Below, in pieces: positions 33,651 through 53,887 of a stretch of DNA of 64,000 nucleotides. The position numbers and the translations under genes were made by a program. The stretch spans positions 310,001 to 374,000 of the forward strand of contig NZ_RCHI01000001.1 of NCBI RefSeq assembly GCF_003664585.1, given 5' to 3'. The notes beneath the pieces are model-generated. The model was not told the DNA's origin. It searched no databases and saw only the letters and a list, made by a program, of their open reading frames with translations. Each line of letters opens with the position of its first letter. Position 1 is the stretch's first letter. This DNA is from Paenirhodobacter hankyongi. GTDB taxonomy: Bacteria; Pseudomonadota; Alphaproteobacteria; Rhodobacterales; Rhodobacteraceae.

Positions 33651-33740
33651 GGAAGCGTGGCCGAGTGGTTTAAGGCTCTGGTCTTGAAAACCAGCGTGGG
33701 GGAGACCCCACCGTGGGTTCGAATCCCACCGCTTCCGCCA
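33651..33740 (+). tRNA. tRNA-Ser (anticodon UGA)
   Basis: A 90-base class II tRNA: acceptor stem GGAAGCG pairs with CGCTTCC (33730-33736), discriminator G and encoded CCA at 33738-33740. The anticodon stem CTGGT/ACCAG encloses CTTGAAA, giving anticodon TGA (reads UCA-type serine codons). The extra arm is long (GCGTGGGGGAGACCCCACC), as expected for tRNA-Ser, and the T loop is GGTTCGAATCC. Its 3' end is the insertion site of the island that follows. Confidence 0.98.
33726..33740 (+). repeat. Left attachment core (attL) within the tRNA-Ser 3' end
   Basis: CCACCGCTTCCGCCA, the last 15 bases of the tRNA gene, recurs in the same orientation at 53873-53887, immediately outside the integrase end. 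Tyrosine integrases commonly recombine in tRNA 3' ends and restore them, so this marks the left border of the island. Confidence 0.88.
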
Positions 33741-33787
33741 ATTAGCATTGAAAACATGTGTAAATATCCGTTTATTAGATAGATACC

Positions 33788-33840
33788 CGCCCATCAACCC
33801 GCCTTCCTGAAAACGCTTGGATGCAACGCGATCCGACGGG
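33788..33840 (+). repeat. Left copy of a 53-bp direct repeat flanking the Zorya module
   Basis: This 53-base segment, beginning CGCCCATCAACCCGCC, matches 41728-41780 at 48 of 53 positions in direct orientation. It lies between the tRNA and the end of zorD, in non-coding DNA. A second short match, AGCATTGAAAAC, occurs upstream of both copies (33744-33755 and 41652-41663). Confidence 0.85.
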
Positions 33841-33988
33841 TTCTTCGGGCTTGTCGAGAAGATTGACCTAGATGCCGGGTATTCCCTTCCACTGCAGAGG
33901 CATGATGAAGATGCGATCTCGGATAGCTATGGCCGGGCAGTTGGAAAGGGTGAAAAGCTGGAAGCAAGACAGGTTCAGGCCACGGGTG

Positions 33989-36900
33989 TCACTCGAACCG
34001 ATATTCGCCCTTCGCGTCAGGGGGGGGGCAGGGGGTGCCATCGCGGGCGAAGGTTTCTGCCATTGCTTCGTCCACCGGGTCACCGCCGGACGCAAATGAG
34101 GTTTCCTGTGCGACGAGGCGTTGCAGCTCGCCCGCGTCCGATCCGGTATCGCCCATCGGCCAGAGCGCCGAGCTTGCCAGATGGCGCTTGCGCTGCATCA
34201 ACGATTGCAGCAGGCAGTCGAAGCTCTGGGCGCGGTAGCCCGGGTGGATCGCCATCGGGACATGGATCGTGACCGGACGGGTCTGGCCGATACGGTGCAC
34301 GCGGTCGTTGCACTGTTCCTCGACTGCCGGGTTCCACCAGCGCGACAGGTGGATCACGTGGGTGGCTGCGGTCAGCGTCAAGCCGGTGCCCGCAGCCTTG
34401 GGCCCCAGTACCAGCAGGTCGAATCCCTCGTCATGCTCCAGGTGCCGTTGGAATCGATTGACGATTTCCTGCCGTTGCTTGATCGCCGTGTCTCCGTTGA
34501 TCAGGTCAATACGGTCGAGGCCGAACTCGGCGCGTGCCAGTTCGATGAAACGGTACTGCATCTGCCGGTGCTCGATGAAGACCAGCGCCCGCTGGCCTGC
34601 TGCGCGGATGTCGCGCAGCAGGTCGAAGGTGGCGTTCAGTCGGGCCGAGGCGGCGATGAAATCCTCGTCGCCGGCGGCATCGTGCAACGCCGGATGCACG
34701 GAAACTGTCCGGATGTGGTGCAGAAGCTTGAGCGCCGCGCCCTTTGCCCCGGCGGCCAGCTGGATCCGCGCCTGGTCATAGGTTTCGGCCTGAAAGCGTG
34801 GCATGGTCCGGGGGGCCAGAAGCCGTGTCTTGCTGGGCAGATCACGGGCGACCGTGTCCTTGATCCGGCGCAACCCGAGCGGCGGCAGGTCCCCCTGGGG
34901 CTTGAAGACCCGCGCGTGCAGATCGGCCATGTTGTCGGTGTCGGGGAGCGCGTAACGCTGGCGGAAGTCCTTCAGGGATCCGAGTGCCCCCGGCGCCAAC
35001 TGGTCCATGATCGCCCAAAGGTCCACTGTCGAGTTTTCGATCGGCGTGCCGGTCAGGCCGATCCGGAAGTCGGCCTTCATTGCCCGGGCAGCGACGGCGC
35101 TCAGCGTGGTCGGGTTCTTGATCGCCTGGATTTCGTCGAACACGGCGGCGGAGAAGGGAATGCGGGCCAGCGAATGTTGATAGTTTGTCAACGTGCTGTA
35201 GGTCGTAAGAATCCAGGTCAGATGCCCGGCACCGACCTCGGCTGCGCGTTCCAGGTCGGAAAAGTCCAGCTTCGACGCACCGCTTTCGATGTCCCTGCCT
35301 TGAGTTGCCGCTTTTTTGCGGTTCCCGATCCCGCTGCCATACAGCCGGATCAGATGACCGAGCCCGGGCGAGGCGACGTGGCGTGCGACCTCCTGTTCCC
35401 AGTTCACCAGAAGCGAGGTCGGAGCGACGACCAGGATCGGTCCGCGTTTCGTGCCCTCGTGTTTCATGTGCTCGTTGAGCCAGACCAGGAAGGAGATGGT
35501 TTGCAGGGTTTTGCCCAGCCCCTGTTCGTCGGCATTCAGCACGCCGGGCAGACCGGCCTGCCAGGCCTTGACCTGCCAGTCGAAACTTTCGACCTGGTGA
35601 TCCTTGAGGGGGGTGGTGATGGTCCGCGGCAGGCGCAGCGGGGCCGCTGCCGTGCGGGGCGGAGTGGCGGGGCGCCAGTGCACCTCTTCGAAATTGTCTT
35701 CTGTCCGCAGGACGACCGGTCCCGAGGGCGAGTCTTCCGGGGCGGTGTCGTCGTCTGCGGGCTCTTCCTGGGGGGGCGCTGAGCGTTCTTTCAGCCTCAG
35801 TTCCACCGCTTGTAGAACTTCGGGGTGCGCCGGAAGCTGAAGATCGCCCTGGGTGACGTGCTCCTGTCCCGTGTCGATCGCCTGGCGTAGGCGCTCACCC
35901 AGCTGCGCGAGCGCCTCGTTCGGCAGAGCTTCCAGGCGGCTGCGCACTTCGGCGGAGAACAGTTCCGGCAGCCAGGTGGTGCCGCTGGATTCGACCAGCG
36001 AGAGGTCGGGGCGTTCGTAGATCTCGATCCCGGTGACGCGGGCCGAAAACGCCTCGTATTCAGAGGTTTCGACGAAAGCCGGGCCGGCGGCGGCCTCGAT
36101 GCTTTCCTCGCGCCCGGCGTCATCCAGCCCGGCCAGCGCGCCACGGGCCTCCAGCGCGGTTTCCAGCGCCTCCGTGATCCGTGGGCGCGGGTTGCGGATG
36201 AATTCCCGGCGTTCTTCGCGTGGCGCGCGTTGCATCCGGGTCATGACTTCCAGCACCGGCGCGGCGGCCCGGTCGATCACCAGGAATTTTCCGGGGCCCA
36301 GCCGGAAGGCGTTCAATGCGCCGCGCTGGCGCAGCTTGCGCTGGAAATCCCCAAGGCTGGCGCCGGCCAGTTCGGCCATCGATTCCGTCACTTCGAGGGC
36401 TTCGCCGATTGCGTGGCCGGAGAACGGTACGACCTCGAAATCCGTGCCTTGCGCATCCGGGGTGATCGAGAAACGGTCGGCAAGCCTGACCTCCAGGCCG
36501 GACAGGAAATCGGTCATCGAGAACCGCGCGGCCTGACTGTCGCCGCTGTCCACGATCCCCGGGTCCAGGGCACGGCGGAATCGGGCGAGCGCTTCCCAAT
36601 CGGCGGCATCTCCCTGACCCGAACGGTAGCTCTCCGCGAGCTCCAGCGCATCGAGCATCCAGAGGGGCACCCGTTGTGATCCGCGGTCGGACTGCAGCAA
36701 CGCGCCCGTTCGAGCCGGCAGCTTGCGTTGGCCGTTACGTCGCCATTCGGTGTGCAGCCGGAAGCTCGGCTCGCCGACAACGCCCTCGACATTGGTGTGC
36801 AGGACGAGATCGGTCAGGGGCGGCAATCCCAGCTCGGCGCCGGTCGTTCCATCCAGCGCCGCAGCAAGGCGATGCGACAGGCGGATCGTATCGGACTCGA

Positions 36901-37093
36901 TGGTCAGCGGCTCGCCGGTTTCCGCCGCGGCGCTGCGCAGGTCGGCCAGTGCCAGCGCCAGCTTGCGGTCCTGCGGTGCGAGATGGGTCAAATCTGTGCC
37001 CGGTTTCGCGCGCAGCCGGTCCAGCAGACCGCGCTTTTGCGCGAGGAGAGTCAGGGTGATTGCATCGGGGGTATGGGCAAGGGTGAAAGTCAT
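33989..37093 (-). CDS. zorD: Zorya type I protein ZorD, SNF2-family helicase/nuclease
   Basis: The 1034-residue protein has a C-terminal half with SNF2/superfamily 2 motifs: DEQGLGKTLQTISFL (Walker A, about residue 522), VFDEIQAIKNP (motif II, about residue 653), LTGTPIENS (motif III), and in the second RecA lobe LVLGPKAAGTGLTLTAATHVIHLSRWWNPAVEEQ and DRVHRIGQTRPV (about residue 934). The N-terminal 480 residues have no motif I recognise. In Zorya type I, ZorD is the effector that degrades or remodels phage DNA at the site of infection. Its gene starts four bases after the zorC stop, the last of four leftward genes. The helicase alone could belong to other defence systems; the neighbours decide. 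Confidence 0.92.
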   Translation of the reverse strand: MTFTLAHTPDAITLTLLAQKRGLLDRLRAKPGTDLTHLAPQDRKLALALADLRSAAAETGEPLTIESDTIRLSHRLAAALDGTTGAELGLPPLTDLVLHTNVEGVVGEPSFRLHTEWRRNGQRKLPARTGALLQSDRGSQRVPLWMLDALELAESYRSGQGDAADWEALARFRRALDPGIVDSGDSQAARFSMTDFLSGLEVRLADRFSITPDAQGTDFEVVPFSGHAIGEALEVTESMAELAGASLGDFQRKLRQRGALNAFRLGPGKFLVIDRAAAPVLEVMTRMQRAPREERREFIRNPRPRITEALETALEARGALAGLDDAGREESIEAAAGPAFVETSEYEAFSARVTGIEIYERPDLSLVESSGTTWLPELFSAEVRSRLEALPNEALAQLGERLRQAIDTGQEHVTQGDLQLPAHPEVLQAVELRLKERSAPPQEEPADDDTAPEDSPSGPVVLRTEDNFEEVHWRPATPPRTAAAPLRLPRTITTPLKDHQVESFDWQVKAWQAGLPGVLNADEQGLGKTLQTISFLVWLNEHMKHEGTKRGPILVVAPTSLLVNWEQEVARHVASPGLGHLIRLYGSGIGNRKKAATQGRDIESGASKLDFSDLERAAEVGAGHLTWILTTYSTLTNYQHSLARIPFSAAVFDEIQAIKNPTTLSAVAARAMKADFRIGLTGTPIENSTVDLWAIMDQLAPGALGSLKDFRQRYALPDTDNMADLHARVFKPQGDLPPLGLRRIKDTVARDLPSKTRLLAPRTMPRFQAETYDQARIQLAAGAKGAALKLLHHIRTVSVHPALHDAAGDEDFIAASARLNATFDLLRDIRAAGQRALVFIEHRQMQYRFIELARAEFGLDRIDLINGDTAIKQRQEIVNRFQRHLEHDEGFDLLVLGPKAAGTGLTLTAATHVIHLSRWWNPAVEEQCNDRVHRIGQTRPVTIHVPMAIHPGYRAQSFDCLLQSLMQRKRHLASSALWPMGDTGSDAGELQRLVAQETSFASGGDPVDEAMAETFARDGTPCPPPDAKGEYRFE

Positions 37094-37097
37094 GGTG

Positions 37098-38414
37098 TCA
37101 AAGGCTCATGGATACCCGGCTTTGCCAGTCGCCGAGATGGGGAATCGTTTTGGCTCCATGCCTGCCGCGGGCGCGGATGTGGTCGACGTCGTATTGACGC
37201 TGGTACAGCTTCGGCGAGAGCTCGGCATCGGCTGGGAAGATGTGGACCTTGAAGTTGTAGGTGCCCTCGACGACGATCTTGTTGCCGATCCGCATGAACA
37301 GAAGGGATTTGTCCTTTTCGCCGGTCTGATGCGCAAAACGATAGGCAGAATGTCGGGTGTCGGGCGGCAGTTTGGACGTCGCTGCGCGGTAGCCCTCGGA
37401 GTTGAAGGCGATCCAGACCTCATCCAGCAGCCCCTGCTCGTATTTGGTCCACCAGAAGTCCTCGCGGTCGCGCCACATATGGCCGCGTTCGACCTCGGTC
37501 AGGACGCGGAACAGGAAGCGGATATCTGAGCCCATCAGCCAGCGCAGAAGCTGTTTCTCCAGCGAGGGGTCGATGAGGTTCCAGATCGCATTGCGTGAAA
37601 CCCGTGGGTGGCCGTAAAGCTCGGTCAGCCGGTCGGTCAGCAGGGTCATCGTGTCGGGAGGCGGGGCTTGTTCAGCCCAGGGACGCAGCAGCGCCTCGAT
37701 CGCTTCCGCGGCGCCGTTGACGCGGGCGGTCTGGCCGGCGGGGCGCAACCAGTCGAGCAATCTCTCGATCTCGGGCCGCTGGTCAAGCCGGGGGGCGATC
37801 TGCCGCACGAAGGCAAGGTGTGCGGCATCCATCAGCCCCGGAGCATGGGGGTGGCGCAGCCCGATCCGGCGCAGCCCGGTCCAGGGATCCTCCATCTGCG
37901 CCATCCGGGTCGCGATCGCTTCCGGGGCGTGTTGCGGATCCAGAAGCTCGGGGACATGGTCCAGAAGCTGGCGCCATTGCGCGCCGAGGCGGGACTGTGC
38001 GCCTTTCAGGTGGCGGGCCAGGTCTGCGCTGTGGACGGCGCCCGGGGCGAAGGTCTCGATGTAGATCCGCAGCATCGGGTTCAGGAAACCTGCACGGGTC
38101 GAGGCGGCGATCTCGGCGAGCAGGAAGGCGCGAATGCGGTCATGGGCGGGATCGTCGCGCCAAGGGGCGGAAAACGCCAGCCGCGCCGCGCGTGTCGCGA
38201 AGCTCATCGGCACCTTGTGCCAGTCGCGTCGCGCGATCCGGTCTGCCATTTCGGCCAGCAGCCGTTCCGGATCGCGTTCGGGTTTCTCGGGCCTGTCCCA
38301 ACGATCCAGAACGCGCTTGACCGTCCGGTTCAAGGCGGTGAAATCCGGTGGAACTGGCAGCTGAAGCGGGGTGGCGCGTTCCAGCAGTTCCGACAAGGGG
38401 CGGGGGGGGCTCAT
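37098..38414 (-). CDS. zorC: Zorya type I protein ZorC (EH-signature domain)
   Basis: The 438-residue soluble protein has no membrane segment. A C-terminal block of about 130 residues with FWWTKYEQGLLDEVWIAFNS, KSLLFMRIGNKIVVEGTYNF and the end HLGDWQSRVSMSL is typical of the EH-signature family to which ZorC belongs. ZorC is thought to link the membrane motor with DNA recognition. The start overlaps the zorB stop by four bases, and zorD follows four bases after the stop. Recognition depends on gene order as much as on sequence, since ZorC proteins are diverse. Confidence 0.85.
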   Translation of the reverse strand: MSPPRPLSELLERATPLQLPVPPDFTALNRTVKRVLDRWDRPEKPERDPERLLAEMADRIARRDWHKVPMSFATRAARLAFSAPWRDDPAHDRIRAFLLAEIAASTRAGFLNPMLRIYIETFAPGAVHSADLARHLKGAQSRLGAQWRQLLDHVPELLDPQHAPEAIATRMAQMEDPWTGLRRIGLRHPHAPGLMDAAHLAFVRQIAPRLDQRPEIERLLDWLRPAGQTARVNGAAEAIEALLRPWAEQAPPPDTMTLLTDRLTELYGHPRVSRNAIWNLIDPSLEKQLLRWLMGSDIRFLFRVLTEVERGHMWRDREDFWWTKYEQGLLDEVWIAFNSEGYRAATSKLPPDTRHSAYRFAHQTGEKDKSLLFMRIGNKIVVEGTYNFKVHIFPADAELSPKLYQRQYDVDHIRARGRHGAKTIPHLGDWQSRVSMSL

Positions 38415-39394
38415 GGTTCTCCCCCGCGCAGTTTCAGCTCGGCCGAGATCCGTTCTATATCCTCGACCCGGTGCGGGATCAGGTCCTTGCCCGGTGGCAC
38501 ATACATGATGAAGCGCAGATCGATGCGGCGGTTGGCGGCCTTGCCCTGCAGCGTGTCGTTGTCGGTGATCGGCCGCATCTCGCCATAGCCTGCCAGCGCC
38601 AGGACCGGTTGATCCAGCAGGTTCTCGAATCCCAGCATCGGCGGATGGTCGTCACGCGCGCTGTCGGGGGCGATCTCGTTGAAGGCGGAAAGCGCCCGCG
38701 TCATCGACAGTTGCAGGTTGTAGGCCTGTGAGGCGTCGGCATCGGTATGCCCCTCGACCTGCACGGTCTCGATCAGGACGAGGTCGGGGTTGCAAGACAG
38801 GTCTACCTTGCCGCTCGGGCCGGTGCTGAAGCAGGGTAATTGCCGGGCCAGGTGATCCCCCAGGAGCCGGATGATCCGAAGGCTCTGGCCGCTCAACCCG
38901 CCCTGGCCCGAGGCGAAAAGCCCCGCCCCCTGGAACCGCAGCGCATCGCCCTGCGCGCTGACGTCAAGCCCCTCGATCTTCTCGCGCAGGATATCGGCCT
39001 TGACCGCCTTGGCCAGGGCATCGACGATCGCGGTGCGGCTACGTACGGCTTCGGCGTTGTAAACCTCGAGCGGGTCTTTCTTGGCCAGCTGTCGGCGCAG
39101 TTCGGCGATCTCTTTCTCGAGCTCGGCGATGCGGGTGGCTTGATCTCTGTTTTCCTGCTGCAGCCGAGTGACTTCGGCCTCCAGTCTTGCGATTTCGGCT
39201 CGCGCATTGTCGCGTTCCTGCACCACGGTGTCGTAGACCGGACGCGAGACGGTGTCGGTGTCATTGTATCGGCTGGCGAAGAAGGCCAGCAGGATCATCA
39301 GGATGAACAGGAAGCTGATCGTCATGTCGGTCATCGACACGAAGGCGGATTCGGCCTCTTCTTCCTCGCGGTGACGACGGGGCGCGAACCGCAT
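38411..39394 (-). CDS. zorB: Zorya protein ZorB, MotB/OmpA-type stator subunit
   Basis: The 327-residue protein has an N-terminal cytoplasmic basic/acidic stretch, a single membrane helix (about residues 24-42, MTISFLFILMILLAFFAS) preceded by an Asp (residue 23) in the position of the ion-binding Asp of MotB, a coiled coil (about 55-105) and a C-terminal OmpA-like peptidoglycan-binding domain (about 190-320; VEGHTDADASQAYN, GYGEMRPITDN, NRRIDLRFIM). With ZorA it forms the ion-driven membrane motor of the system. Stop of zorA and start of zorB share one base (TGATG). Confidence 0.93.
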   Translation of the reverse strand: MRFAPRRHREEEEAESAFVSMTDMTISFLFILMILLAFFASRYNDTDTVSRPVYDTVVQERDNARAEIARLEAEVTRLQQENRDQATRIAELEKEIAELRRQLAKKDPLEVYNAEAVRSRTAIVDALAKAVKADILREKIEGLDVSAQGDALRFQGAGLFASGQGGLSGQSLRIIRLLGDHLARQLPCFSTGPSGKVDLSCNPDLVLIETVQVEGHTDADASQAYNLQLSMTRALSAFNEIAPDSARDDHPPMLGFENLLDQPVLALAGYGEMRPITDNDTLQGKAANRRIDLRFIMYVPPGKDLIPHRVEDIERISAELKLRGGEP

Positions 39395-41439: not shown

Positions 41440-41899
41440 TGCTGTCTCTGCTCTCGTTTGTACAGTTACAGGGCCGACAAATCCGCTTTCCACGCAGGGC
41501 AAAAAAGACGATACGGCTCCAAATCAAATACTACCTATGGGTAATTGGCGGGCAAATACAGCCCGTTTGGGGTGAGGTTTGGGAATTTTGGAGGCGACCT
41601 TTGCGGTGGCGCAAGGTCTGCCGGTTGATCTTGTGCATATCCGGGAGGGAGAGCATTGAAAACGCTCGGAGCATGCCTCGGTTGGGGCAAGGTTGGGGCA
41701 AGGACGTGAATCTGTTCAGATGGCTTTCGCCCATCAACCCGCCCTCCTGGAAACGCCTGGATGCAACGTGATCCGACCGGGGGGAGCCTCGGTTTGTGGC
41801 GGGGGCGTAAACACTGCCGCGTCGGAAACGGTCGCATCGCGTTGCCAAGGCTTGCTGCGGGTGGTCTAGTCCGCCGCGAAACGACCCCGGAGACCCATC
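41440..41899. other. Divergent intergenic region between zorA and hsdM
   Basis: No gene is visible here. The left part is AT-rich (around 41500-41570, with AAATCAAATACTACCTATGGGTAATTGG) and probably holds the zor promoter. Further right are AGCATTGAAAAC (41652-41663), a tandem 11-bp repeat GGTTGGGGCAA x2 (41680-41701), and the second 53-bp repeat copy (41728-41780). About 30 bases before the hsdM start the sequence GCGGGTGGTCTAGTCC could be part of its promoter, which is weak evidence. Confidence 0.55.
41728..41780 (+). repeat. Right copy of the 53-bp direct repeat flanking the Zorya module
   Basis: It matches 33788-33840 at 48 of 53 positions, same orientation, 7,940 bases apart. The two copies enclose exactly the zorDCBA genes and nothing else. 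The five differences show that the duplication is not recent or that the copies came from related elements. Confidence 0.85.
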
Positions 41900-45105: not shown

Positions 45106-45106
45106 G

Positions 45107-48100
45107 ATGGCGACGCACAGGGAAATCGGCTTCGAGGAACAGATCTGCGCCGATCTGGCCGCGCAGGGCTGGCTTTACGCCGAACCGGGGCAGGCGGGCG
45201 ACGCCCGCTCCTATGACCGCGTGCTTGCGCTTTACCCCGAGGACCTGATCGCCTGGGCCGAGGCGACGCAGCCCAGGGCTTGGGCCGAGGCGCTGGCCCG
45301 CCATGGTCTGCCCGCGATCCTTGCCCGGATCCGCAAGCAGCTCGACGCGCGCGGCACGCTCGATCTGTTGCGCCAGGGCGTCGAGATCGTCGGCTTGCGC
45401 GCGCCCCTGATGCTGGCGCAGTTCCGCCCGGCGAGCGGCATGAACCCCGAGATCACCGCGCGCTATGACGCCAACCGGCTGCGGGTGCTGCGGCAGGTGC
45501 ATTACTCGGAGGCCGCGCCCAACCGCAGCATCGACCTCGTGCTGTTCCTGAACGGCATCCCGGTGGCCACGACCGAGCTGAAGACCGATTTCACCCAGAG
45601 CGTTCAGGATGCGGTCGATCAATACCGCTTCGACCGCAAGCCGCAGGAAAAGGGCGGCAAGCCCGAGCCGCTGCTGTCCTTCCCCGGCGGTGCGCTGGTG
45701 CATTTCGCGGTCTCGGACCGGCTGGTGCGGATGACGACGCAGCTTGCGGGCCCAGCGACCCGGTTCCTGCCCTTCGACCGGGGCGATCACGGCGCGGCCG
45801 GCAACCCGGTGAACCCGGACGGCCACCGCACCGCCTATCTGTGGCAGGAGATCTGGGCGCGCGACAGCTGGCTCGAGATCCTCGGGCGCTACATGGTCGG
45901 AGTGAAGGACGCCAGGAAGAAGCTCGTGGGGGCGATCTTCCCGCGCTATCACCAGCTTGACGCGACGCGGTGCATCCGGGCCGCGGTGCTGAAGGAAGGG
46001 CCGGGCGGCAAATACCTGATCCAGCACTCGGCGGGGTCGGGCAAGACCAACTCGATCGCCTGGACCGCGCATCAGCTAGCCGACCTGCACGACGCCGGGG
46101 ACCGCAAGATGTTCTCGACGGTGATCGTGGTCTCGGACCGCAACGTGATCGACACCCAGCTGCAGGAGGCCGTCTTCGCCTTCGAGCGCACCACCGGCGT
46201 GGTCGAGACGATCACCCGCGAGCACGGCGCCAAGCGCAAGCAGCTGACCGAGGCGCTGAACGGCGAGAAGAAGATCGTGGTCTGCACGATCCAGACCTTC
46301 CCGGCGCTGATGGATGCGGCGGAGAAACTGGCCTCGACCGCCGGCAAGAGCTTTGCGGTGATCGCCGACGAGGCGCATTCGAGCCAGACCGGCGGCGCGG
46401 CCTCGGCGCTGAAACAGGTGCTGTCCGCCGAGGAGAAGGCCGAGCTGGAAGATGGCGGCGGGTTCTCCAGCGAAGACGTCATGAACGCGACCATGTCGGC
46501 CAGGGCCGCGCCCCGGGGCATCAGCTTCGTCGCCTTCACCGCGACGCCCAAGGGCAAGACGCTGGAACTGTTCGGCCGGCGCCCCGATCCGGACGCGCCC
46601 GCCGGCCCCGGCAATCTGCCCGCGCCGTTTCACGTCTATTCGATGCGGCAGGCGATCGAGGAGGGCTTCATCCTCGACGTGCTGCAGAACTACACACCTT
46701 ATGACCTGGCGTTCCGCCTGTCCGCGAACGGCCGCGAGATCGACGACAGGGAGGTCGAGCGCAGCAAGGGCACCAAGGCGCTGATGCAATGGGTGCAGCT
46801 GCACCCGACCAACATCGCGCAGAAGGTGGCGATCGTGGTCGAGCATTTCCGCACCACGGTGATGCCGCTGCTGAACGGCCACGCCAAGGCGATGGTGGTC
46901 ACCGCAAGCCGCAAGGAGGCGGTGCGCTGGCAGATCGCGATGCGCAAGTACATCGAGGAGAGGGGATACGGGCTTGGCACGCTGGTGGCCTTCTCGGGCG
47001 AGGTCAGCGATCCCGAAAGCGGTCCCGACCCGTTCTCGGAGACCAGCAAGACGTTGAACCCGGGGTTGCGCGGCGACATCCGCGAGACATTCAAGGGCCC
47101 GGCCTTCCACCTGTTGATCGTCGCCAACAAGTTCCAGACCGGCTTCGACCAGCCGCTTCTGTGCGGCATGTATGTCGATCGCCGGCTCGCGGGGATCCAG
47201 GCGGTGCAGACGCTGTCGCGGCTCAACCGGGCCTACGAGAAGGACGGGGTGAAGAAGGACACGACCTATATCCTCGATTTCGCCAACAGTGCCGAGGATA
47301 TCCTGTCGGCCTTCCGCACCTATTACGAAACCGCCGAGCTGGAGGATGTCACCGACCCGAACCAGGTGCTCGACCTGCGCGCGCAGCTGGACGGGCTGGG
47401 CTATTACGACGACGGAGAGGTCGACCGGGTGGTGCGAGCCGCGCTCGATCCGAAGGCGTCGCACGGGGCGCTGTCGGCGGCGCTGGAGCCGGTGGCGGAT
47501 CGGCTGCTGAAGCAGTTCGCCGCGGCGCGCCAGGCCGAGCGCGAGGCCCGCGCCCGGGGGGGCGAGGACGCCGTTCTGGCCGCGAAACAGGTGCAGGAGG
47601 CGCTGATCCTGTTTCGTTCGAACATGGGGGCCTATGTGCGGCTCTACGCATTCCTGTCGCAGATCTTCGATTACGGCTCGACCGACATCGAGGCCCGCAG
47701 CATCTTCTATCGCCACCTGATCCCGGTGCTGGAGTTCGGGCGCGAACGCGAGGGAGTCGACCTGAGCAAGATCGAGCTGAGCTTCGTCAAATCGAACCGC
47801 AAGGACAGCGCGAGGCTGCAGCTGTCCGGCCCGGCCGAGAAGCTGAAACCGATGACCGAGACCGGCTCGGCCTCGGTGCAGGACAAGGAAAAGGCGCGGC
47901 TCTCCGAGATCGTCGCCCGGCTCAACGACCTGTTCTCGGGGCTGACCGAGGGCGATGAGGTGTCGGGGCTGAACACCATCCACACCAAGGTCATGGAAAA
48001 CGAGCAGCTGCGCCAGCAGGCCGCGAGCAACAACAAGGAGCAGTTCGCCAACTCGCCCCTGCTCAAGGCCGCGGTGATGGATGCGATCATCTCCTCCGCC

Positions 48101-48217
48101 GACGCACAGGACGAGATGACCCGGCAGCTCCTGAGTTCCGACGCAACGCTGGAGGGTTTCCTGGCCGTCATGACCGGGCCCGGCCAGCTTTACGAGGCGC
48201 TCAGGGGGCAGGGGTGA
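45107..48217 (+). CDS. hsdR: Type I restriction enzyme motor/endonuclease subunit HsdR
   Basis: The 1036-residue protein has an N-terminal nuclease domain (FNGIPVATTELKTDF gives the E-x-K of the PD-ExK fold, about residue 158, with YDANRLRVLRQ upstream), then an SF2 translocase: IQHSAGSGKTNSIAW (Walker A, about residue 308), VIADEAHSSQ (motif II, about residue 422), FTATPKGKTLELFG (motif III) and ANKFQTGFDQPLLCGMYVD plus VQTLSRLNRAYEKDG (motifs V and VI). A helical C-terminal domain binds HsdM/HsdS. The start is one base after the hsdS stop. All key residues are present, so the system appears functional. Confidence 0.96.
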   Translation: MATHREIGFEEQICADLAAQGWLYAEPGQAGDARSYDRVLALYPEDLIAWAEATQPRAWAEALARHGLPAILARIRKQLDARGTLDLLRQGVEIVGLRAPLMLAQFRPASGMNPEITARYDANRLRVLRQVHYSEAAPNRSIDLVLFLNGIPVATTELKTDFTQSVQDAVDQYRFDRKPQEKGGKPEPLLSFPGGALVHFAVSDRLVRMTTQLAGPATRFLPFDRGDHGAAGNPVNPDGHRTAYLWQEIWARDSWLEILGRYMVGVKDARKKLVGAIFPRYHQLDATRCIRAAVLKEGPGGKYLIQHSAGSGKTNSIAWTAHQLADLHDAGDRKMFSTVIVVSDRNVIDTQLQEAVFAFERTTGVVETITREHGAKRKQLTEALNGEKKIVVCTIQTFPALMDAAEKLASTAGKSFAVIADEAHSSQTGGAASALKQVLSAEEKAELEDGGGFSSEDVMNATMSARAAPRGISFVAFTATPKGKTLELFGRRPDPDAPAGPGNLPAPFHVYSMRQAIEEGFILDVLQNYTPYDLAFRLSANGREIDDREVERSKGTKALMQWVQLHPTNIAQKVAIVVEHFRTTVMPLLNGHAKAMVVTASRKEAVRWQIAMRKYIEERGYGLGTLVAFSGEVSDPESGPDPFSETSKTLNPGLRGDIRETFKGPAFHLLIVANKFQTGFDQPLLCGMYVDRRLAGIQAVQTLSRLNRAYEKDGVKKDTTYILDFANSAEDILSAFRTYYETAELEDVTDPNQVLDLRAQLDGLGYYDDGEVDRVVRAALDPKASHGALSAALEPVADRLLKQFAAARQAEREARARGGEDAVLAAKQVQEALILFRSNMGAYVRLYAFLSQIFDYGSTDIEARSIFYRHLIPVLEFGREREGVDLSKIELSFVKSNRKDSARLQLSGPAEKLKPMTETGSASVQDKEKARLSEIVARLNDLFSGLTEGDEVSGLNTIHTKVMENEQLRQQAASNNKEQFANSPLLKAAVMDAIISSADAQDEMTRQLLSSDATLEGFLAVMTGPGQLYEALRGQG

Positions 48218-48678
48218 GAGGGGGCGAGAGGTCCGGCCAAACCCGAGGGAATGAGGGAACACCATGGTAAACGTGCCGTGATCTTCGGACATGCAGGATC
48301 TACCAACGTCCGTGGTGTTCCCGGAGCGGCTGATGACCAGTAAGGAATACGCCGATCGGCAGGTAGGACCGATCAACAGGACGTATCAGGAAGTCCCTCA
48401 CGCCGGCCGTTGGTCAGCAACGTATCAGGGCGGGACGGTCTGCACTGCGACGGGATAATCCCGGGGCGGGAATGCTTCGGACGGGGGAGAGCGAGACGCG
48501 GCAATCGCTGTGATCCGTGCCACTGCTGGAAATATCTGGGATGGCGTTTCGTTTTATCTTGGGAACTAACACCCCATGACGCGCGAGGGGCTCCGATGAA
48601 CAATTCTAAACAGGCATTTTGAGATCTGACGCCTCGTCCGGATGCGGAAGGCGGGATGGAGCCTTCGTTTCGCTGGGC
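48218..48678. other. Gene-poor stretch between hsdR and the satellite core
   Basis: I see no gene supported by a start, codon use and homology. The stretch contains a 10-bp inverted repeat GGGAACACCA (48255-48264) and TGGTGTTCCC (48313-48322) that could fold into a terminator-like stem after hsdR, or mark the end of a lost element. The rest (GACCAGTAAGGAATACGCC onward) is unlike coding DNA in either direction. Confidence 0.45.
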
Positions 48679-48921
<243 letters not shown>

Positions 48922-48990
48922 TGTTCGTTTCTCCGATCTGAATGAGCGGACGTCGGCGAGGCGGCATGCTTCGCCGGCGTGTTTTAGCTG

Positions 48991-49053
48991 CCACAAGTGC
49001 CACAAGTGCCAAGGCTTCCGATCTGCGGTGTTTTGGACGCGTGGCACTTGTGG
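48991..49053 (-). terminator. Inverted repeat with tandem arm after the DUF3631-type gene
   Basis: CCACAAGTGCC occurs twice in overlap (48991-49001 and 49000-49010) and once inverted as GGCACTTGTGG (49043-49053), giving two alternative 11-bp stems, 17 bases after the ATPase stop. It may end transcription or regulate the small gene beyond. Confidence 0.5.
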
Positions 49054-49069
49054 TGGATGTGGTGATTTG

Positions 49070-50350
49070 TCAGGGCTTGGAGAGATAGCGCCCAAAGGCA
49101 TCCTCGAAGTCACGACGCAGGTAGTAGCTCCCGGAGTTGTCCTGCCGCGGCGCGATCTCGTAGGGCTTGAGCAGCTTGACGATACCTTTGCCCGAAATAG
49201 GCTTGTCACCCCGCCATTCGCTCCAGGGCGCCTTTTCCAGCGCGCAGAGCGCGTCGACAAGTTCTTGGCTGCCGATCCGCGGTTCCGGTTTGCGGGTGAA
49301 GACCTCCTCGATGTCTTCCAGCAGCTTGATGCCGTCAGACTGCGCCTCGTTGCGGTCGCGGTCGGCGTAGGCCTTGATCAGGGCCGAGTGCAGCTTTTCC
49401 GGCCACTCCCCCCCGATCACGTCGGCGATCGCGCAAAGGCAGCGAGCGTTGTCCTGGGCGCGATCGTCCAAGGCTGCGGGAATGTCATCGGGATCTGCGC
49501 CACGAAGGGTCGGGAGATGATCGGCGGCCCAACGGGCGCAACGGGACTGAAGCGGCCGGAACTGGTCGATGCGGTCGGCACGGAACCGGCAGACCGTCTC
49601 GGTCTTGAGCTTCCGACGCAGGCGCACTGGAATCGCACGGTCCTCCAGCGTGTCCGGCAGGCGCCCGATCATGGCGATGCCCTTAGGCCCCCATACATCG
49701 AAGACGATCGGTTCGAAATTGTCGCCGGTGCAACGGAGCACGCTGGAACTCAGGCGATTGTGACCACCGTTCAGCATGCCCAGAAGCTCGCCGTTCTTGT
49801 CCTTGCTCAGGAAGGTGTCCCCCTCGTCGATCAGCAAGGTTGGGCGCCATTTTTGGATCACGCGGAACATGGCCGCGGGGCTCAGGTTGGCGGTATGAAG
49901 CGGGCGCGGGACGAGCACGCTAAGGAGCGACATCAGCGTGGTCTTGCCGCAGCGTTTTTCCGGCGACGTGATGCCGAGCACCGGCGAGATGGTGGCGGCC
50001 TCGTGGCACCACGCATGAAGGATCCAGAACGCGATCAGGGTCGCGCTCTCCGGGGGAAGAACACAGTAGCGCAGGATCGTTTCGTACAACTCGCGCGCAA
50101 GCTCGGCCCCGTTCACCGGTTCGACCGCGGGAGCGATGTCTCCGAACTTCAAAGCGACGGTGCCCGAGGCTTTGGCGCGCTCCTCTTCGACTAATGCATC
50201 GAAAACACTGACGCGCAGGCCCAGCTTTTCGGCCAATTCATTGCGTTCGCATTCGTATTCGACCGTGCTCTTGGCGGCGGAGGCCTCGATGATTTTCTTG
50301 GCCCTCTCGGTCTTGGAGGGATGCACCACGAGAGTGGTATCGTTGGTCAT
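49070..50350 (-). CDS. DUF3631-type ATPase (satellite/phage replication helicase-like)
   Basis: The 426-residue protein has a P-loop SPEKRCGKTTLMSLLSVL (about residue 130) and a following LLIDEGDTFLSKDKNGELLG Walker B region, then GCH-type text KGIAMIGRLPDTLEDRAIPVRLRRK, a sensor-like Arg finger. The C-terminal part carries the KLLEDIEEVF and ISGKGIVKLLKPYEIAPRQD stretches of DUF3631. It likely works with the preceding toprim protein as primase-helicase in replication of the element. Its ATG shares one base with the stop of the toprim gene (TAATG), so translation is coupled. Confidence 0.85.
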   Translation of the reverse strand: MTNDTTLVVHPSKTERAKKIIEASAAKSTVEYECERNELAEKLGLRVSVFDALVEEERAKASGTVALKFGDIAPAVEPVNGAELARELYETILRYCVLPPESATLIAFWILHAWCHEAATISPVLGITSPEKRCGKTTLMSLLSVLVPRPLHTANLSPAAMFRVIQKWRPTLLIDEGDTFLSKDKNGELLGMLNGGHNRLSSSVLRCTGDNFEPIVFDVWGPKGIAMIGRLPDTLEDRAIPVRLRRKLKTETVCRFRADRIDQFRPLQSRCARWAADHLPTLRGADPDDIPAALDDRAQDNARCLCAIADVIGGEWPEKLHSALIKAYADRDRNEAQSDGIKLLEDIEEVFTRKPEPRIGSQELVDALCALEKAPWSEWRGDKPISGKGIVKLLKPYEIAPRQDNSGSYYLRRDFEDAFGRYLSKP

Positions 50351-51297
50351 TACACGCCCCCCTTCATGCGCAGGAGTTCGTCGTTCCAGTCACGCCCGTC
50401 GGCGGCGGGGAACATTTCGACCGTCCAGTCCAGCGCGCTGGCGCGCATGGCCAGCGCGTCGCCGGCTTTGCGCCCAGGGAGGTCGCCATCCGTCGCGATG
50501 ATGATGTGGCCGGGGCTGGCTGGGAGGTGGAGGGAGGAGAGGCCAGGGGCCGAGAGCGCGCTCCAGAGCGTCATGGAACGCGGCAGGAGTCCGCAGGCGA
50601 GGCTCAGGGCCGTTTCAATCCCCTCGGCCACCACCAGGGGGCCGGGGCCGCGGGAGAGCTTCACGGCGCCCCCACGCGTCGGTCCGAGCATGGTTTTCGT
50701 CGGGGTCACCGCCGCCTTGGCCGAACCGTCCGGCTTGAGGTAGGTGCGATGCACGGCGAAGCCCCGGGGGGCATCAATGCAGGCGATCATCGCCGGCAGG
50801 CGCTGCGCCGTCTGGGCGTGCCAGGCGGCGGGGTGAAAGCGGAGGTTCGCGGGCAGGGCGCAGGTGATGCCGCGCCTGCGCAGGTAGCGTTCGGCCGGGG
50901 TGTTGGCGATGGCCTGCGCCTCGTCCCAGCAGATGCGGGCGAGGGCGGAGCGCTTGCGCATCGCTTTTTCGCGCTCGGCTTTCTGACGCGTCCGCTCGTG
51001 CTCGGGGAACTGCAGCGTGTCACCGGTCCCGTCGAGGAGACCGCGGTGGCGCAGCACCCCGCAGATTGCGGGGAAGCTGCAGCCGGCATAGCAATACATC
51101 AGGAGGCGCCCGTCATCGCCCTGGGCGATCGAGAGGCTGGGGTGGTGGTCGTCATGGGCGGGGCAGATGGCAATGCCTTGGCACCCGGTCCATTTCCCTC
51201 CCAGAGCGCGGGTGATGCACTCGGCATCGCTCGTCGTGCCTTGGGCATGCGGATGCCGCGCATGATGGTGCTGGTGATCATAGAGGGAGAATTTCAT
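50350..51297 (-). CDS. Toprim-domain primase-like protein of the island
   Basis: The 315-residue protein has a short N-terminal zinc-finger-like part (CQGIAICPAHDDHHPSLSI with later YCYAGCSFPAIC, CHC2-type), a helical middle with WDEAQAIANTPAERYLRRRGI, and a C-terminal toprim domain (LVVAEGIETALSLACGL; IIIATDGDLPGRKAGDALAMRA), including the Glu and DxD metal ligands. It is typical of primases encoded next to DUF3631 helicases in integrated elements. The ATG at 51297 is the likely start; the frame is open a further 73 codons without a binding site. Together with the ATPase it forms the replication module. Confidence 0.87.
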   Translation of the reverse strand: MKFSLYDHQHHHARHPHAQGTTSDAECITRALGGKWTGCQGIAICPAHDDHHPSLSIAQGDDGRLLMYCYAGCSFPAICGVLRHRGLLDGTGDTLQFPEHERTRQKAEREKAMRKRSALARICWDEAQAIANTPAERYLRRRGITCALPANLRFHPAAWHAQTAQRLPAMIACIDAPRGFAVHRTYLKPDGSAKAAVTPTKTMLGPTRGGAVKLSRGPGPLVVAEGIETALSLACGLLPRSMTLWSALSAPGLSSLHLPASPGHIIIATDGDLPGRKAGDALAMRASALDWTVEMFPAADGRDWNDELLRMKGGV

Positions 51298-51401
51298 TTC
51301 TCGCTTATCTCCTCGATTGAGGATCGGGGCGCGAAACTGTATCTTCGGAGTTGCTGAGGACCGAAGAAAAGCCGCCGCCCCCGGATCCGAGGGTGGCGGT
51401 C

Positions 51402-51587
51402 TTAGCCGCGGGTAGCGCAGGTCTTTTCCCACGCCTCGATTTCGGACAGCTTCCAGCGCGCGCATTGCGGCCCCAGCTTCACCGGGTGCGGGAAGGCGGG
51501 GTCGGTCTTCGCCCAACGCCAGGGCGTCGAGCGGTGGACGTTGTAGCGTTCCGCCAGCTGCAGATCGGAAATATAGGACTCGGCCAT
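51402..51587 (-). CDS. AlpA-type excisionase/regulator
   Basis: The 61-residue protein MAESYISDLQLAERYNVHRS is followed by TPWRWAKTDPAFPHPVKLGP, the MerR-like winged helix of AlpA/Xis-type proteins, where a Trp-rich recognition region contacts DNA. Such proteins activate integrase or excision in P4-like elements. I choose the ATG at 51587 because GGAGTG precedes it by nine bases; an ATG five codons earlier is possible. It lies 104 bases before the toprim gene and next to a G-rich repeat region (51642-51785). Confidence 0.82.
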   Translation of the reverse strand: MAESYISDLQLAERYNVHRSTPWRWAKTDPAFPHPVKLGPQCARWKLSEIEAWEKTCATRG

Positions 51588-51641
51588 TTCAGGGCACTCC
51601 ATCGTGTTGCGATGGGGTGCAAACTGTCGCCGGCTTATCGG

Positions 51642-51785
51642 CTTAAATAGGGGGGAGGTTGCAGAAAACCCCACCCCCCATTCGGGCTTTTCCTACCCCC
51701 AGTTCCTGCTCTTCGGTTTTGGCTGGGTGGCAGATTTAAGTGAGGAAATCGTCCTCTTTCAATCCGTTAAATGGGGGGTGGGTTG
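51642..51785. repeat. Three copies of a G-rich motif (AAATGGGGGGTGGGTT-like) next to alpA
   Basis: Copies lie at about 51643-51661 (plus), 51667-51682 (minus, AACCCCACCCCCCATT) and 51767-51785 (plus). The first two face each other and could form a hairpin. They lie in the 217 bases between the alpA start (51587) and the end of the integrase-coupled gene (51805), where regulatory sites or iterons of an element's replication origin might be expected. The function is unknown. Confidence 0.55.
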
Positions 51786-51804
51786 TTCAAGAAGCCGGTC
51801 AGGG

Positions 51805-52443
51805 TTAGCCGGGGGTGGAGCTGGCTCCACCTTTCTTGTTCCAGTTCACAACCATAGAAATCCGCTCCATTGCGTTGTTAGTTTGAGGTCCTAGCCACTC
51901 GTCCTTCCAATTGGTCTCCAGCCACGCTTCGATCTCTTTCCGAGTGCCCGTGTTCAATTCCAAGTTCGGGGCGAGTGCACACCATGTTTCCACAGCCATT
52001 GCCAATTCGGGAGAGAAATGGGGGTGGGACGGATCCATGTACGGTAGTGTCCTTTCCTGCTTCACCGAGGTAACGAAGAAGCTGTCCGGTATTCCTTTGG
52101 ATCTGATCCACGCCTTCATGCTCGTGACGTCGAGCTGGGTCTTGTCCCAGTCTGGTTCGCGATCTTTCGTCTGAGATGTATTGGCGCCGGAGGGCGTCGT
52201 CGTGTCCTGACCATTGGAGGGGCTTGGCCATGTGCCCAAGGTGTCGTCGGAATAGGACAGCGTTGCTTCTATGTCCCTTCTCATGACGGCTTGCTGCAAG
52301 GCGCTGAAAGCCGCATCGAAGCCCAGCCGGTCTGCGCCATTTCCATAAGGTGAAGGGTCGCCGCCGCACATCAATATCGCAGCGTTCTTCACGCTCATCT
52401 GGTCGTGCATCCGCCAGAACCTGAGAGGGTCTTCCTCGATCAT
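51805..52443 (-). CDS. Hypothetical protein translationally coupled to the integrase
   Basis: The 212-residue protein is acidic and soluble, with N-terminal MIEEDPLRFWRMHDQMSVKNAAILMCGGDP, a middle low-complexity TTTPSGANTSQTKDREP, and a C-terminal part with RKEIEAWLETNWKDEW. I do not recognise a domain or catalytic motif. Its ATG (52443-52441) overlaps the integrase stop by four bases (ATGA), so both are made from one message. Genes of unknown function in this place after a P4-type integrase are common in Rhodobacterales islands; a role in integration or entry is possible but not shown. Confidence 0.75.
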   Translation of the reverse strand: MIEEDPLRFWRMHDQMSVKNAAILMCGGDPSPYGNGADRLGFDAAFSALQQAVMRRDIEATLSYSDDTLGTWPSPSNGQDTTTPSGANTSQTKDREPDWDKTQLDVTSMKAWIRSKGIPDSFFVTSVKQERTLPYMDPSHPHFSPELAMAVETWCALAPNLELNTGTRKEIEAWLETNWKDEWLGPQTNNAMERISMVVNWNKKGGASSTPG

Positions 52444-53732
52444 TTTATCCTCAACACTTTCGTCCCGACCCGGTTCCTTCCGGTCAGGTAATCTGCCCAT
52501 GCCGCCATCATCTCGCGGCGCTTATCCACCATGTCGCCGCGCCGGTAAGACGCTTCGACGGCGCTCGAAATCTTGTGCGCCAGCGCGACCTCGGCCATCT
52601 CGCCCGGATATTTCGTGCGCTCTGCGATCCAGTCTCGGAAGGTCGAGCGGAGGCCGTGCGGCACTGCAGGGCGCTTGCTGGCCCGGTCGACGAAGCCCGG
52701 CCCGCCCACGTCTACATCGGCCTTGTGCAGGCGCTTCATGGCGGCGCTCAGGGTCATATCGGACATCTCGCCGCCACGGGGCGCGGGGAACACGAGCGGG
52801 TTGTTCTCGAAGCGCGGGAGAACCCGCAACAGCGTTAATGCAGCGTCGGAAAGTGGAACGCGGTGTTCGCGGTCCATCTTCATCCGTTCCGCGGGGATGA
52901 TCCAAAGCCCTTGCTCGAGGTCGATCTCTTCCCAGAGTGCGCCACGAACCTCTTGCGAACGGGATGCACAGAGGGCGGCGAACTCGAGGGCGCGGCTTCC
53001 CATACCGTCACGGGCGCGCAGGGCGGCGAACCAGCGCGGGGCGTCGTCGATCTGCACCGCAGGCTGGTTGTCGCCTTTCTTCACCTTGGAGGCGGCCGGC
53101 AGCAGCTCCTTGAGGTTGCCGCGCCAGCGGGCAGGGTTGTCGCCGTTGCGATGCCCGGCGACGGTGGCCCAGGACAGGACGGCTTCGATCCGCCCGCGAA
53201 GGCGCGAGGCGGTCTCGGTCTTGTCGCGCCAGATCGGTTCCAGGACGCGCAGCACGTCTTGTACGGTGATGTCCTGAACCATCATGGGCCCTAGCTCGGG
53301 CAGGGCGTATTGGGTCAAGGTGTTGCGCCATTGCTGGCGGTGCTTCGGGTTCTTGTGCGCATCGAGCTTCGCGGCGAGGTAGCGATCGACGGCATCATCG
53401 AAGCTGAGCCCGCGGCGTTGCGCGGTAACGAGCGCCGCCCGGGCCGCTTTGCGCTCTTCTACCGGATCGATTCCGTTGCGGATCTTGTCCTTGGTTTCGC
53501 GGGCGCGGTCCCGGGCCTGTGCCAAGGTTACATCCGGGTAGCCGCCTAGGCCGATCTCGCGGCGCTTGTTGCCGATGCGCACCCGCAGGAGCCACGAACG
53601 CGCGCCTGAAGGGGTGATCTGCAGCGAAAGCCCCGAGACCCCGCCGACAGGGAAGGTCACGTTGCGCCCACGTCCCGGGTGGGTGAGACGCTTCACATCT
53701 AGCGCTGAAAGCTCCTTGGCGATGAGAGGCAC
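52440..53732 (-). CDS. P4-type tyrosine integrase of the island
   Basis: The 430-residue protein has an N-terminal DUF4102 arm-binding part (MPLIAKELSALDVKRL; GLSLQITPSGARSWLLRVR), a core-binding domain (about 100-215) and a C-terminal tyrosine-recombinase catalytic domain with Arg in CASRSQEVRGALW (about residue 255), the HxxR box VPHGLRSTFRDW, a second His in VALAHK and the nucleophile Tyr in VEASYRRGDMVDKRREMM. All catalytic residues are present. The gene lies 141 bases from attR, with its promoter side toward it, typical of P4-like integrases. It should insert and excise the element at tRNA-Ser. Confidence 0.95.
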   Translation of the reverse strand: MPLIAKELSALDVKRLTHPGRGRNVTFPVGGVSGLSLQITPSGARSWLLRVRIGNKRREIGLGGYPDVTLAQARDRARETKDKIRNGIDPVEERKAARAALVTAQRRGLSFDDAVDRYLAAKLDAHKNPKHRQQWRNTLTQYALPELGPMMVQDITVQDVLRVLEPIWRDKTETASRLRGRIEAVLSWATVAGHRNGDNPARWRGNLKELLPAASKVKKGDNQPAVQIDDAPRWFAALRARDGMGSRALEFAALCASRSQEVRGALWEEIDLEQGLWIIPAERMKMDREHRVPLSDAALTLLRVLPRFENNPLVFPAPRGGEMSDMTLSAAMKRLHKADVDVGGPGFVDRASKRPAVPHGLRSTFRDWIAERTKYPGEMAEVALAHKISSAVEASYRRGDMVDKRREMMAAWADYLTGRNRVGTKVLRIK

Positions 53733-53762
53733 AATACCCTCCTAAGTACCCGCCCAAGAATA

Positions 53763-53848
53763 TGCGACAAGTTGCGACTTGTGGCAATGCCTTGCAAACT
53801 GGTTTCTTAGAAAGTTCTGTGAAGTCATAGCATTGCGACGAGTTGCGA
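53763..53848. repeat. Probable integrase arm sites (TGCGACRAGTTGCGA, two copies)
   Basis: TGCGACAAGTTGCGA (53763-53777) and TGCGACGAGTTGCGA (53834-53848) match at 14 of 15 positions in the 141 bases between the integrase start and attR. Repeated short sites here are expected for arm-type binding by the N-terminal domain of tyrosine integrases. Function is inferred from position. Confidence 0.6.
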
Positions 53849-53872
53849 AAAGTTCTCCGCCAAAAATGGCGG

Positions 53873-53887
53873 CCACCGCTTCCGCCA
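53873..53887 (+). repeat. Right attachment core (attR)
   Basis: CCACCGCTTCCGCCA is identical to the last 15 bases of the tRNA-Ser gene at 33726-33740, in the same orientation. It is preceded by unrelated sequence and followed by host-like DNA, so it marks the right border of the island. Confidence 0.88.

What the first reader, a model, noticed from the sequence alone, without database searches (positions are those of the whole stretch)
33651..53887. tRNA-Ser-integrated defence island with exact att borders
The last 15 bases of tRNA-Ser(UGA) recur at 53873-53887, 141 bases beyond an intact P4-type tyrosine integrase. Between the repeats lie two complete anti-phage systems and a small replication-like core without any phage structural gene. 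Both borders can be placed to the base, which makes the island well suited to study of excision and of how defence cargo is carried by satellite-like elements.
Basis: partly seen in the sequence, partly recalled or inferred. Interest (0 to 1): 0.8.

Follow-up and report, generated by a model that had tools for sequence, protein, structure and literature searches.

The report
Re-addressable tRNA island with defence genes
A 20-kb mobile DNA element carrying two bacterial anti-virus systems sits exactly in the end of a serine tRNA gene, and related elements share a nearly fixed entry site whose 7-letter middle usually matches whichever tRNA gene each one occupies.

Summary
CCACCGCTTCCGCCA, the last 15 bases of tRNA-Ser(UGA), recurs at 53873-53887; these are its only two copies in the genome. 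The 20,147-bp element carries type I Zorya, type I R-M, and int, a gene overlapping int by ATGA, alpA, a Toprim primase and a DUF3631 protein; no structural gene was recognised. Of 22 named related islands with the tRNA at the far end, 18 show the same 14-15-bp repeat. No empty site was found: the only relative with both flanks (G016) holds a different 12.5-kb insert. The new part is at family level. The att core is TGGCGGA-N7-N-CCGCCA; the 7-mer takes 15 forms in 25 sites and matches the occupied tRNA (Ser-GCU, GGA, CGA, UGA; Arg-CCG). Target follows integrase phylogeny no better than chance (11 changes, shuffled mean 10.8). I infer that the 7-bp overlap in the element, not the enzyme, selects among these tRNA genes. 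Gene order and polarity resemble Vibrio PICMI satellites, but the fis target and DUF3987/DUF5906 primase are missing, so it is not a member. Mobility and helper dependence are untested.

The parts
33651..33740 (+). tRNA-Ser(UGA), restored target gene (attL side)
   Evidence: ARAGORN
33726..33740 (+). attL direct repeat CCACCGCTTCCGCCA; inferred 7-bp crossover CACCGCT at 33727-33733
   Evidence: crossover inferred
33783..33804 (-). terminal tandem motif AGGCGGGTTGATGGGCGGGTAT (tRNA end), putative arm or AlpA site
   Evidence: role inferred
33989..37093 (-). ZorD (SNF2 helicase), type I Zorya
   Evidence: PADLOC PDLC00629, 1358 bits
37098..38414 (-). ZorC (EH signature)
   Evidence: PDLC00619; PF15611
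38411..39394 (-). ZorB (OmpA/MotB-like)
   Evidence: PDLC00612
39394..41448 (-). ZorA (MotA-like); ORF opens at 41502, start not settled
   Evidence: PDLC00600, 949 bits
41900..43732 (+). HsdM, type I methyltransferase
   Evidence: PF02384, PF12161; PDLC03029
43729..45105 (+). HsdS, two specificity domains
   Evidence: PF01420, two stretches
45107..48217 (+). HsdR, type I restriction subunit (model match over residues 121-754)
   Evidence: PF18766, PF04313; PDLC03040
48679..48918 (-). small HGGxSTG-domain protein (79 aa from the chosen start), shared by several related islands
   Evidence: NF041373
49070..50350 (-). DUF3631 protein, putative replication ATPase
   Evidence: PF12307; Walker-A-like GKTT seen by eye in the translation; function inferred
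50350..51444 (-). Toprim/DUF7146 primase (start chosen by me)
   Evidence: PF23639, PF13362; phrog_510
51402..51674 (-). AlpA-type regulator or excisionase
   Evidence: PF05930; phrog_66
51805..52443 (-). 212-aa gene that overlaps the int stop by ATGA (iolg-like position)
52440..53732 (-). P4-type tyrosine integrase, 430 aa, open frame
   Evidence: PF22022, PF13356, PF00589; PDB 2khv and 3jtz relatives
53734..53755 (-). terminal tandem motif GGGCGGGTACTTAGGAGGGTAT (int end), partner of 33783-33804
53867..53887 (.). attR core: inverted repeat TGGCGG ... CCGCCA around 9 bp
   Evidence: sequence; family comparison
53873..53887 (+). attR direct repeat CCACCGCTTCCGCCA

Best explanation
The region 33741-53887 is one integrative element that entered the 3' end of tRNA-Ser(UGA) through its own tyrosine integrase. 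Shown by sequence: the repeats, the restored tRNA, the open int frame, the terminal motifs, the cargo, and the same end structure in related islands. Inferred: Int binds the half-site TCCGCCA on both partners and an inverted TGGCGG on the element side, and exchanges strands in the 7 bp CACCGCT. Strand exchange needs matching overlaps, so the 7 bp carried by the element decides which TCCGCCA-ending tRNA gene is entered, while the enzyme reads only the near-invariant flanks. AlpA would direct excision, perhaps through the terminal motifs; the primase and DUF3631 protein would copy the circle; Zorya plus type I R-M would protect host and element against phages. How it leaves the cell (helper phage, conjugation with machinery in trans, or neither) is open.
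For: 15-mer only twice in the genome. Of 22 named islands with a tRNA-Ser or tRNA-Arg at the far end, 17 have a 14-bp and one a 15-bp repeat of its 3' end; five further islands (L178, L179, L167, L168, L040) all have 14 bp. In 12 of 13 genomes searched the 7-mer of the integrase-side site equals that of a host tRNA end; L097 fails (compared by eye; six of the 13 also have their repeat). Two same-genus islands lie at the same tRNA with the same 7-mer: G005 (9,552 bp) and G003 (about 21 kb). Terminal motifs agree between the two ends of one element more than between elements: 16.65 of 22 against 14.13 permuted, 0 of 5000 permutations as high. Target is uncorrelated with integrase phylogeny: 11 changes over 22 labelled rows, shuffled mean 10.8, as low in 153 of 200. 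A typically 7-bp exchange segment with attP-attB identity is stated in PMC10111431 (passage).
Against: No empty site, circle junction or excision data. The nearest relative has another insert there. Exceptions among the 22 islands: L164 has 13 bp (7-mer GACGAAA against GACGAAG in its tRNA), L130 9 bp, L107 35 bp beside a masked stretch, L111 none (its contig begins inside int). Thirteen of 35 tree rows had no label and 13 of 32 inner branches are open; L094's label rests on its 7-mer alone. Recombination between islands could swap int or att segments and give the same pattern without retargeting. For the window alone the terminal-motif match is equalled by 5 of 16 other islands, and some islands in that test are near relatives. 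No close integrase was found in viral contigs (best 56% over a long stretch), and no primase or DUF3631 relative.
Confidence: 0.86

Rival explanations
1. A phage satellite of PICMI type: induced by a helper phage, excised by AlpA, Int and the int-overlapping gene, replicated by its primase and packaged in helper particles, with defence cargo against competing phages.
For: Same order and polarity as PICMIs: distal repeat, int, gene overlapping int by ATGA, alpA, primase, defence genes, target gene (PMC10803314 passages). An ORF of 100 aa or more starts at -8, -1, +2, +3 or +4 from the int stop in 26 of 32 loci, against 220 of 1500 random positions for the whole span -8..+4. Relatives L087, L089 and L092 carry DUF3987, a PICMI primase family.
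Against: With the wider span -8..+60 the contrast is weak: 28 of 32 loci against 710 of 1500 random positions. The PICMI paper calls fis integration a hallmark and reports no exception; the relatives with close integrases are mostly Rhodobacterales, not vibrios; the window primase is Toprim/DUF7146 with DUF3631, not DUF3987; 20 kb is far larger than the 6,110-bp prototype; no viral contig has a close integrase.
Confidence: 0.3
2. An integrative mobilizable element moved by conjugation with machinery supplied in trans.
For: Related island L091 encodes a MobA/VirD2-type relaxase (PF03432, 5.2e-30).
Against: No relaxase family among the window proteins scanned (a TraI model matches the primase at 47 bits, far below its cut-off of 930). 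No oriT search was made.
Confidence: 0.25
3. A static relic: once mobile, now fixed as a defence locus.
For: No evidence of current mobility; the 15-mer pair exists only here; expression of int and alpA is unknown.
Against: int, alpA and primase frames are open and both repeats and terminal motifs are preserved.
Confidence: 0.3

Closest known systems
tDNA genomic islands with a crossover near the T-stem (Islander; PMC4383910, passages read)
   Same: Complete tRNA plus displaced 3' fragment in the same orientation, integrase between them, 2-200 kb.
   Different: Here the crossover is narrowed to 7 bp by comparison, the element side has an inverted half-site copy, and close integrases use several isoacceptors.
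PICMI satellites of Vibrionaceae (PMC10803314, passages read)
   Same: int, ATGA-overlapping gene, alpA, primase, defence genes before the target gene; int beside the distal repeat.
   Different: Target is tRNA-Ser, not fis; different primase family; relatives mostly in Rhodobacterales; three times larger than the prototype; no helper known.
ICEBs1 of Bacillus subtilis (PMC3715440, passages read)
   Same: att site of 5-bp inverted repeats around a 7-bp crossover; a mismatched crossover leaves unequal ends.
   Different: ICEBs1 favours one tRNA site and pays for others; here several targets are seen and the two ends usually match.
Type I Zorya and type I restriction-modification
   Same: All four Zor subunits with near full-length model matches; HsdM, HsdS and HsdR all present.
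   Different: Nothing unusual found; HsdR matches known models only in part.

Membership tests
tDNA genomic island (Islander criteria) | Complete tDNA plus same-orientation 3' fragment, integrase between, 2-200 kb | tested here: met
   20,147 bp
PICMI | int and alpA together | tested here: met
PICMI | Gene overlapping or contiguous with int (ATGA most frequent; 21 of 35 subfamilies overlap) | tested here: met
   ATGA overlap, 51805-52443
PICMI | Primase of the DUF3987 or DUF5906 family | tested here: not met
   Window: DUF7146/Toprim and DUF3631; DUF3987 in relatives L087, L089, L092
PICMI | Integration next to fis | tested here: not met
   Target is tRNA-Ser(UGA)
PICMI | Helper-phage-dependent excision, replication and packaging | not testable with these tools
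   needs phage experiments
P4-like satellites | psu, sid, delta or other P4 marker genes (recalled) | tested here: not met
   no such family among the proteins scanned in Pfam and PHROGs; small unannotated ORFs not scanned
Zorya type I | ZorA, ZorB, ZorC, ZorD | tested here: met
   activity not tested
Type I restriction-modification | HsdM, HsdS, HsdR | tested here: met
   NCBIfam hsdM and hsdR models match below their cut-offs and HsdR only in part; activity not tested
ICE/IME | Relaxase or conjugation genes on the element | tested here: not met
   none; one relative (L091) has a relaxase

The most novel reading that the evidence does not exclude
Alphaproteobacteria host a large family of PICMI-like satellites with one integrase design that can be re-addressed to any tRNA gene ending in TCCGCCA by changing only the 7-bp overlap in the element, with an int-coupled gene that keeps its position but changes family; the window element is a 20-kb member that moves Zorya and type I R-M between strains.
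Probability: 0.3. Interest if true: 0.7.

Novelty: new variant of a known kind. Interest (0 to 1): 0.48.

Why it matters
If the 7-bp overlap rather than the enzyme chooses among tRNA genes, site specificity in this integrase family can be studied with natural matched and mismatched att pairs, and target switching can be followed in living lineages. It also suggests that satellite-like carriers of defence genes with the PICMI layout exist outside vibrios and at tRNA genes.

Tried and rejected
Empty-site search: 17 other same-genus genomes for the downstream flank and the tRNA-Ser(UGA) locus in 14 of the 15 stretches fetched (the G015 stretch held no such tRNA, G006 and G012 were not fetched): no empty collinear site. 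G016 first looked like a refutation of the borders; its locus holds a different insert. Viral contigs: 28 integrase loci, best 56% over a long stretch (one 19-residue match at 79%); primase and DUF3631 none. Structure of the int-overlapping protein: mean pLDDT 58 from a 4-row alignment, judged unusable, no fold search made. Solved structures: nothing for DUF3631. Polarity flip: L110, L112 and nine more distant loci have int next to the tRNA, but no second repeat was found in the DNA held for any of the 11, so a flip is not shown. The 19 sequence groups among 28 int-overlapping proteins are an upper bound: several share an F-x-P-x-G start, seen by eye. Rejected: general tolerance of unequal overlaps as in Tn916 (recalled), because 23 of 27 examined islands carry the same 14-15 bp at both ends; L164 and L130 are exceptions that could fit it. 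Papers: Williams 2002 (sublocation preference of integrase subfamilies) is not held, is known to me only from reference lists and recall, and may already state part of the tRNA-switching idea. Searches showed no title on this family, but several lists were capped (for example 12 of 346) and only titles and abstract starts were seen there, so absence from print is not shown.

Full report
Check of the observation. tRNA-Ser(UGA) is at 33651-33740. Its last 15 bases recur exactly at 53873-53887, and the 15-mer has no third copy in the 3.8-Mb genome. The integrase starts 141 bases from the second copy. Between the copies are Zorya type I (ZorD, C, B, A, near full length against their models) and HsdM, S, R (HsdR matching over residues 121-754 of 1036), then a small HGGxSTG protein, a DUF3631 protein, a Toprim primase, an AlpA protein, an unknown protein and the integrase. 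The element is 20,147 bp with 64% G+C in a 69-72% setting.

The empty-site test. In the sister genome G016 the upstream flank matches at 92% up to window 33690 and the downstream flank at 96% from 53961. Between them lie 12.5 kb of other DNA: a changed 5' fragment of the native tRNA, a complete but different tRNA-Ser(UGA), and genes that I read by eye, without a family search, as a TRAP transporter, LysR regulators, an oxidoreductase and an IS3-like transposase. No relative of the window integrase lies on that contig. This is a different occupant, not an empty site. Of 17 other same-genus genomes only G016 has the downstream flank joined to this locus; others show short or partial matches elsewhere. 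G005 has a 9,552-bp island at the same tRNA with a 14-bp repeat and a 52%-identical integrase, and G003 one of about 21 kb with a 42%-identical integrase and a DruE (Druantia) protein. The site is thus used repeatedly in the genus.

The att sites of the family. A scan of named genomes found 151 relatives of the integrase, of which the best 80 loci were returned. About 150 bp before the integrase the close relatives carry TGGCGGA-N7-N-CCGCCA. Of 30 such sites looked at (window, L168 and 28 named loci, integrases about 68% identical or more), 25 are readable and hold 15 different 7-mers; L098, L100, L107, L110 and L112 were not readable. Of all 22 named loci with a tRNA-Ser or tRNA-Arg at the far end, 17 have a 14-bp and one a 15-bp exact repeat of its 3' end, that is the 7-bp half-site plus the 7-mer; the others are L164 (13 bp), L130 (9 bp), L107 (35 bp, beside a masked stretch) and L111 (none; contig begins inside int). 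Five more islands have 14 bp each. The tRNAs of the close group are Ser-GCU, GGA, CGA and UGA and Arg-CCG (L125). For 13 genomes searched by pattern the 7-mer equals a host tRNA end in 12; L097 has none, and one asked-for locus (L100) was not held (comparison by eye). More distant integrases sit at tRNA-Arg, Glu and Ala with correspondingly changed half-sites, read by eye (L170, L171, L175).

Target against phylogeny. On a tree of 35 integrases, 22 labelled by target, the five targets need 11 changes where 4 is the least; shuffled labels need 10.8 on average and are as low in 153 of 200. Starred branches alone force at least 5 changes for Ser-GCU and 4 for Ser-CGA. So target is not visibly inherited with the integrase over this depth. 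The simplest reading is that the enzyme recognises the half-sites and the overlap supplies the address. In ICEBs1 a mismatched 7-bp crossover leaves unequal ends and a less abundant circle (PMC3715440, passages); here the two ends usually match, so a switched element must have been resolved to one 7-mer. Swapping of int or att segments between islands remains possible.

Ends and backbone. Both ends carry a tandem motif that differs between elements (GGCGGGT, ATGTGGGG or GGCATGC types by eye) but agrees within an element: mean best match 16.65 of 22 against 14.13 for permuted partners, 0 of 5000 as high (17 islands, some closely related). In the window these are 33783-33804 and 53734-53755. For the window alone the match (16 of 22) is equalled by 5 of 16 other partners, so it is supportive only as part of the set. 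Of 29 loci (L087-L114, L125), AlpA homologues were found in 24 and the window's primase in 8 inside the island (L107's hit lies outside and is not counted). Other islands carry DUF3987 (L087, L089, L092) or Prim-Pol (L106) proteins.

The PICMI parallel. In PICMIs a gene overlapping int by ATGA is reported necessary for excision, alpA triggers excision, prim replicates, and defence genes lie between prim and fis (PMC10803314, passages). The window has the same order and polarity with tRNA-Ser in place of fis, and the ATGA overlap. Across 32 loci 26 have an ORF of at least 100 aa starting at -8, -1, +2, +3 or +4 from the int stop, against 220 of 1500 random positions for the span -8..+4; for -8..+60 the figures are 28 of 32 and 710 of 1500. 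The encoded proteins fall into up to 19 groups (28 proteins), as the PICMI paper reports 13 families. That paper reports no PICMI without fis, so membership is not claimed.

Cargo in the family. Of 19 complete or nearly complete islands looked at, 11 have at least one PADLOC match at 1e-5 or better among the ORFs I chose: window, L091, L093, L102, L103, L111, L167 (an RT-protease model, weak), L178, L179, L168, L040. In L092 and L109 no ORF was scanned and in the 16 others besides the window only one to four, so this is a lower bound; L087, L089, L090, L106, L107 and L125 gave none. Type IIG (five islands) and type III (two) restriction systems are the commonest.

Verdict. An ordinary kind of object (tRNA-integrated defence island) correctly recognised, in a family whose address mechanism and PICMI-like layout are worth following. 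Shown: sequence anatomy and comparative pattern. Inferred: crossover position, overlap as address, roles of AlpA, primase and motifs. Unknown: activity, mode of transfer, helper.

Noticed in passing
L033:2046-2183 (G016): The sister genome has a changed 40-nt 5' remnant of the native tRNA-Ser(UGA) followed by a complete, only 77% similar tRNA-Ser(UGA): the tRNA gene seems to have been replaced by an incoming one.
   Followed up: partly
L174:764-19901 with L045 (G003): Another same-genus genome has a roughly 21-kb island at the same tRNA with a DruE (Druantia) protein and a distant integrase using the same 7-mer.
   Followed up: partly
window 51805-52443 and the gene after int in 27 related loci: A gene coupled to the integrase stop keeps its position but belongs to many sequence groups; function unknown.
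   Followed up: partly
L091: An integrase that groups with that of the Rhodobacterales locus L096 lies in a record titled Enemella evansiae (Actinomycetota); contamination or mislabelling is possible.
   Followed up: no
L102:12830-13849, with similar ORFs in L103 and L111: A second protein with a phage-integrase domain (tested for L102 only) sits next to type IIG (L102, L111) or type III (L103) restriction genes inside islands of this family.
   Followed up: partly
L125:9842-11291: An island of this family in tRNA-Arg(CCG) whose integrase has its best open match only over the C-terminal 244 residues, so the gene looks interrupted.
   Followed up: no
L107:9776-9880: A 35-bp piece of tRNA-Ser(GCU) and a masked base lie before the integrase, longer than the usual 14 bp; tandem occupancy or an assembly effect.
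   Followed up: no
window 49070-50350: The DUF3631 protein has a single relative in the phage collection, in Pseudomonas phage Phipami28 (37% identity), and one in L143, a gammaproteobacterial contig with a related integrase.
   Followed up: no
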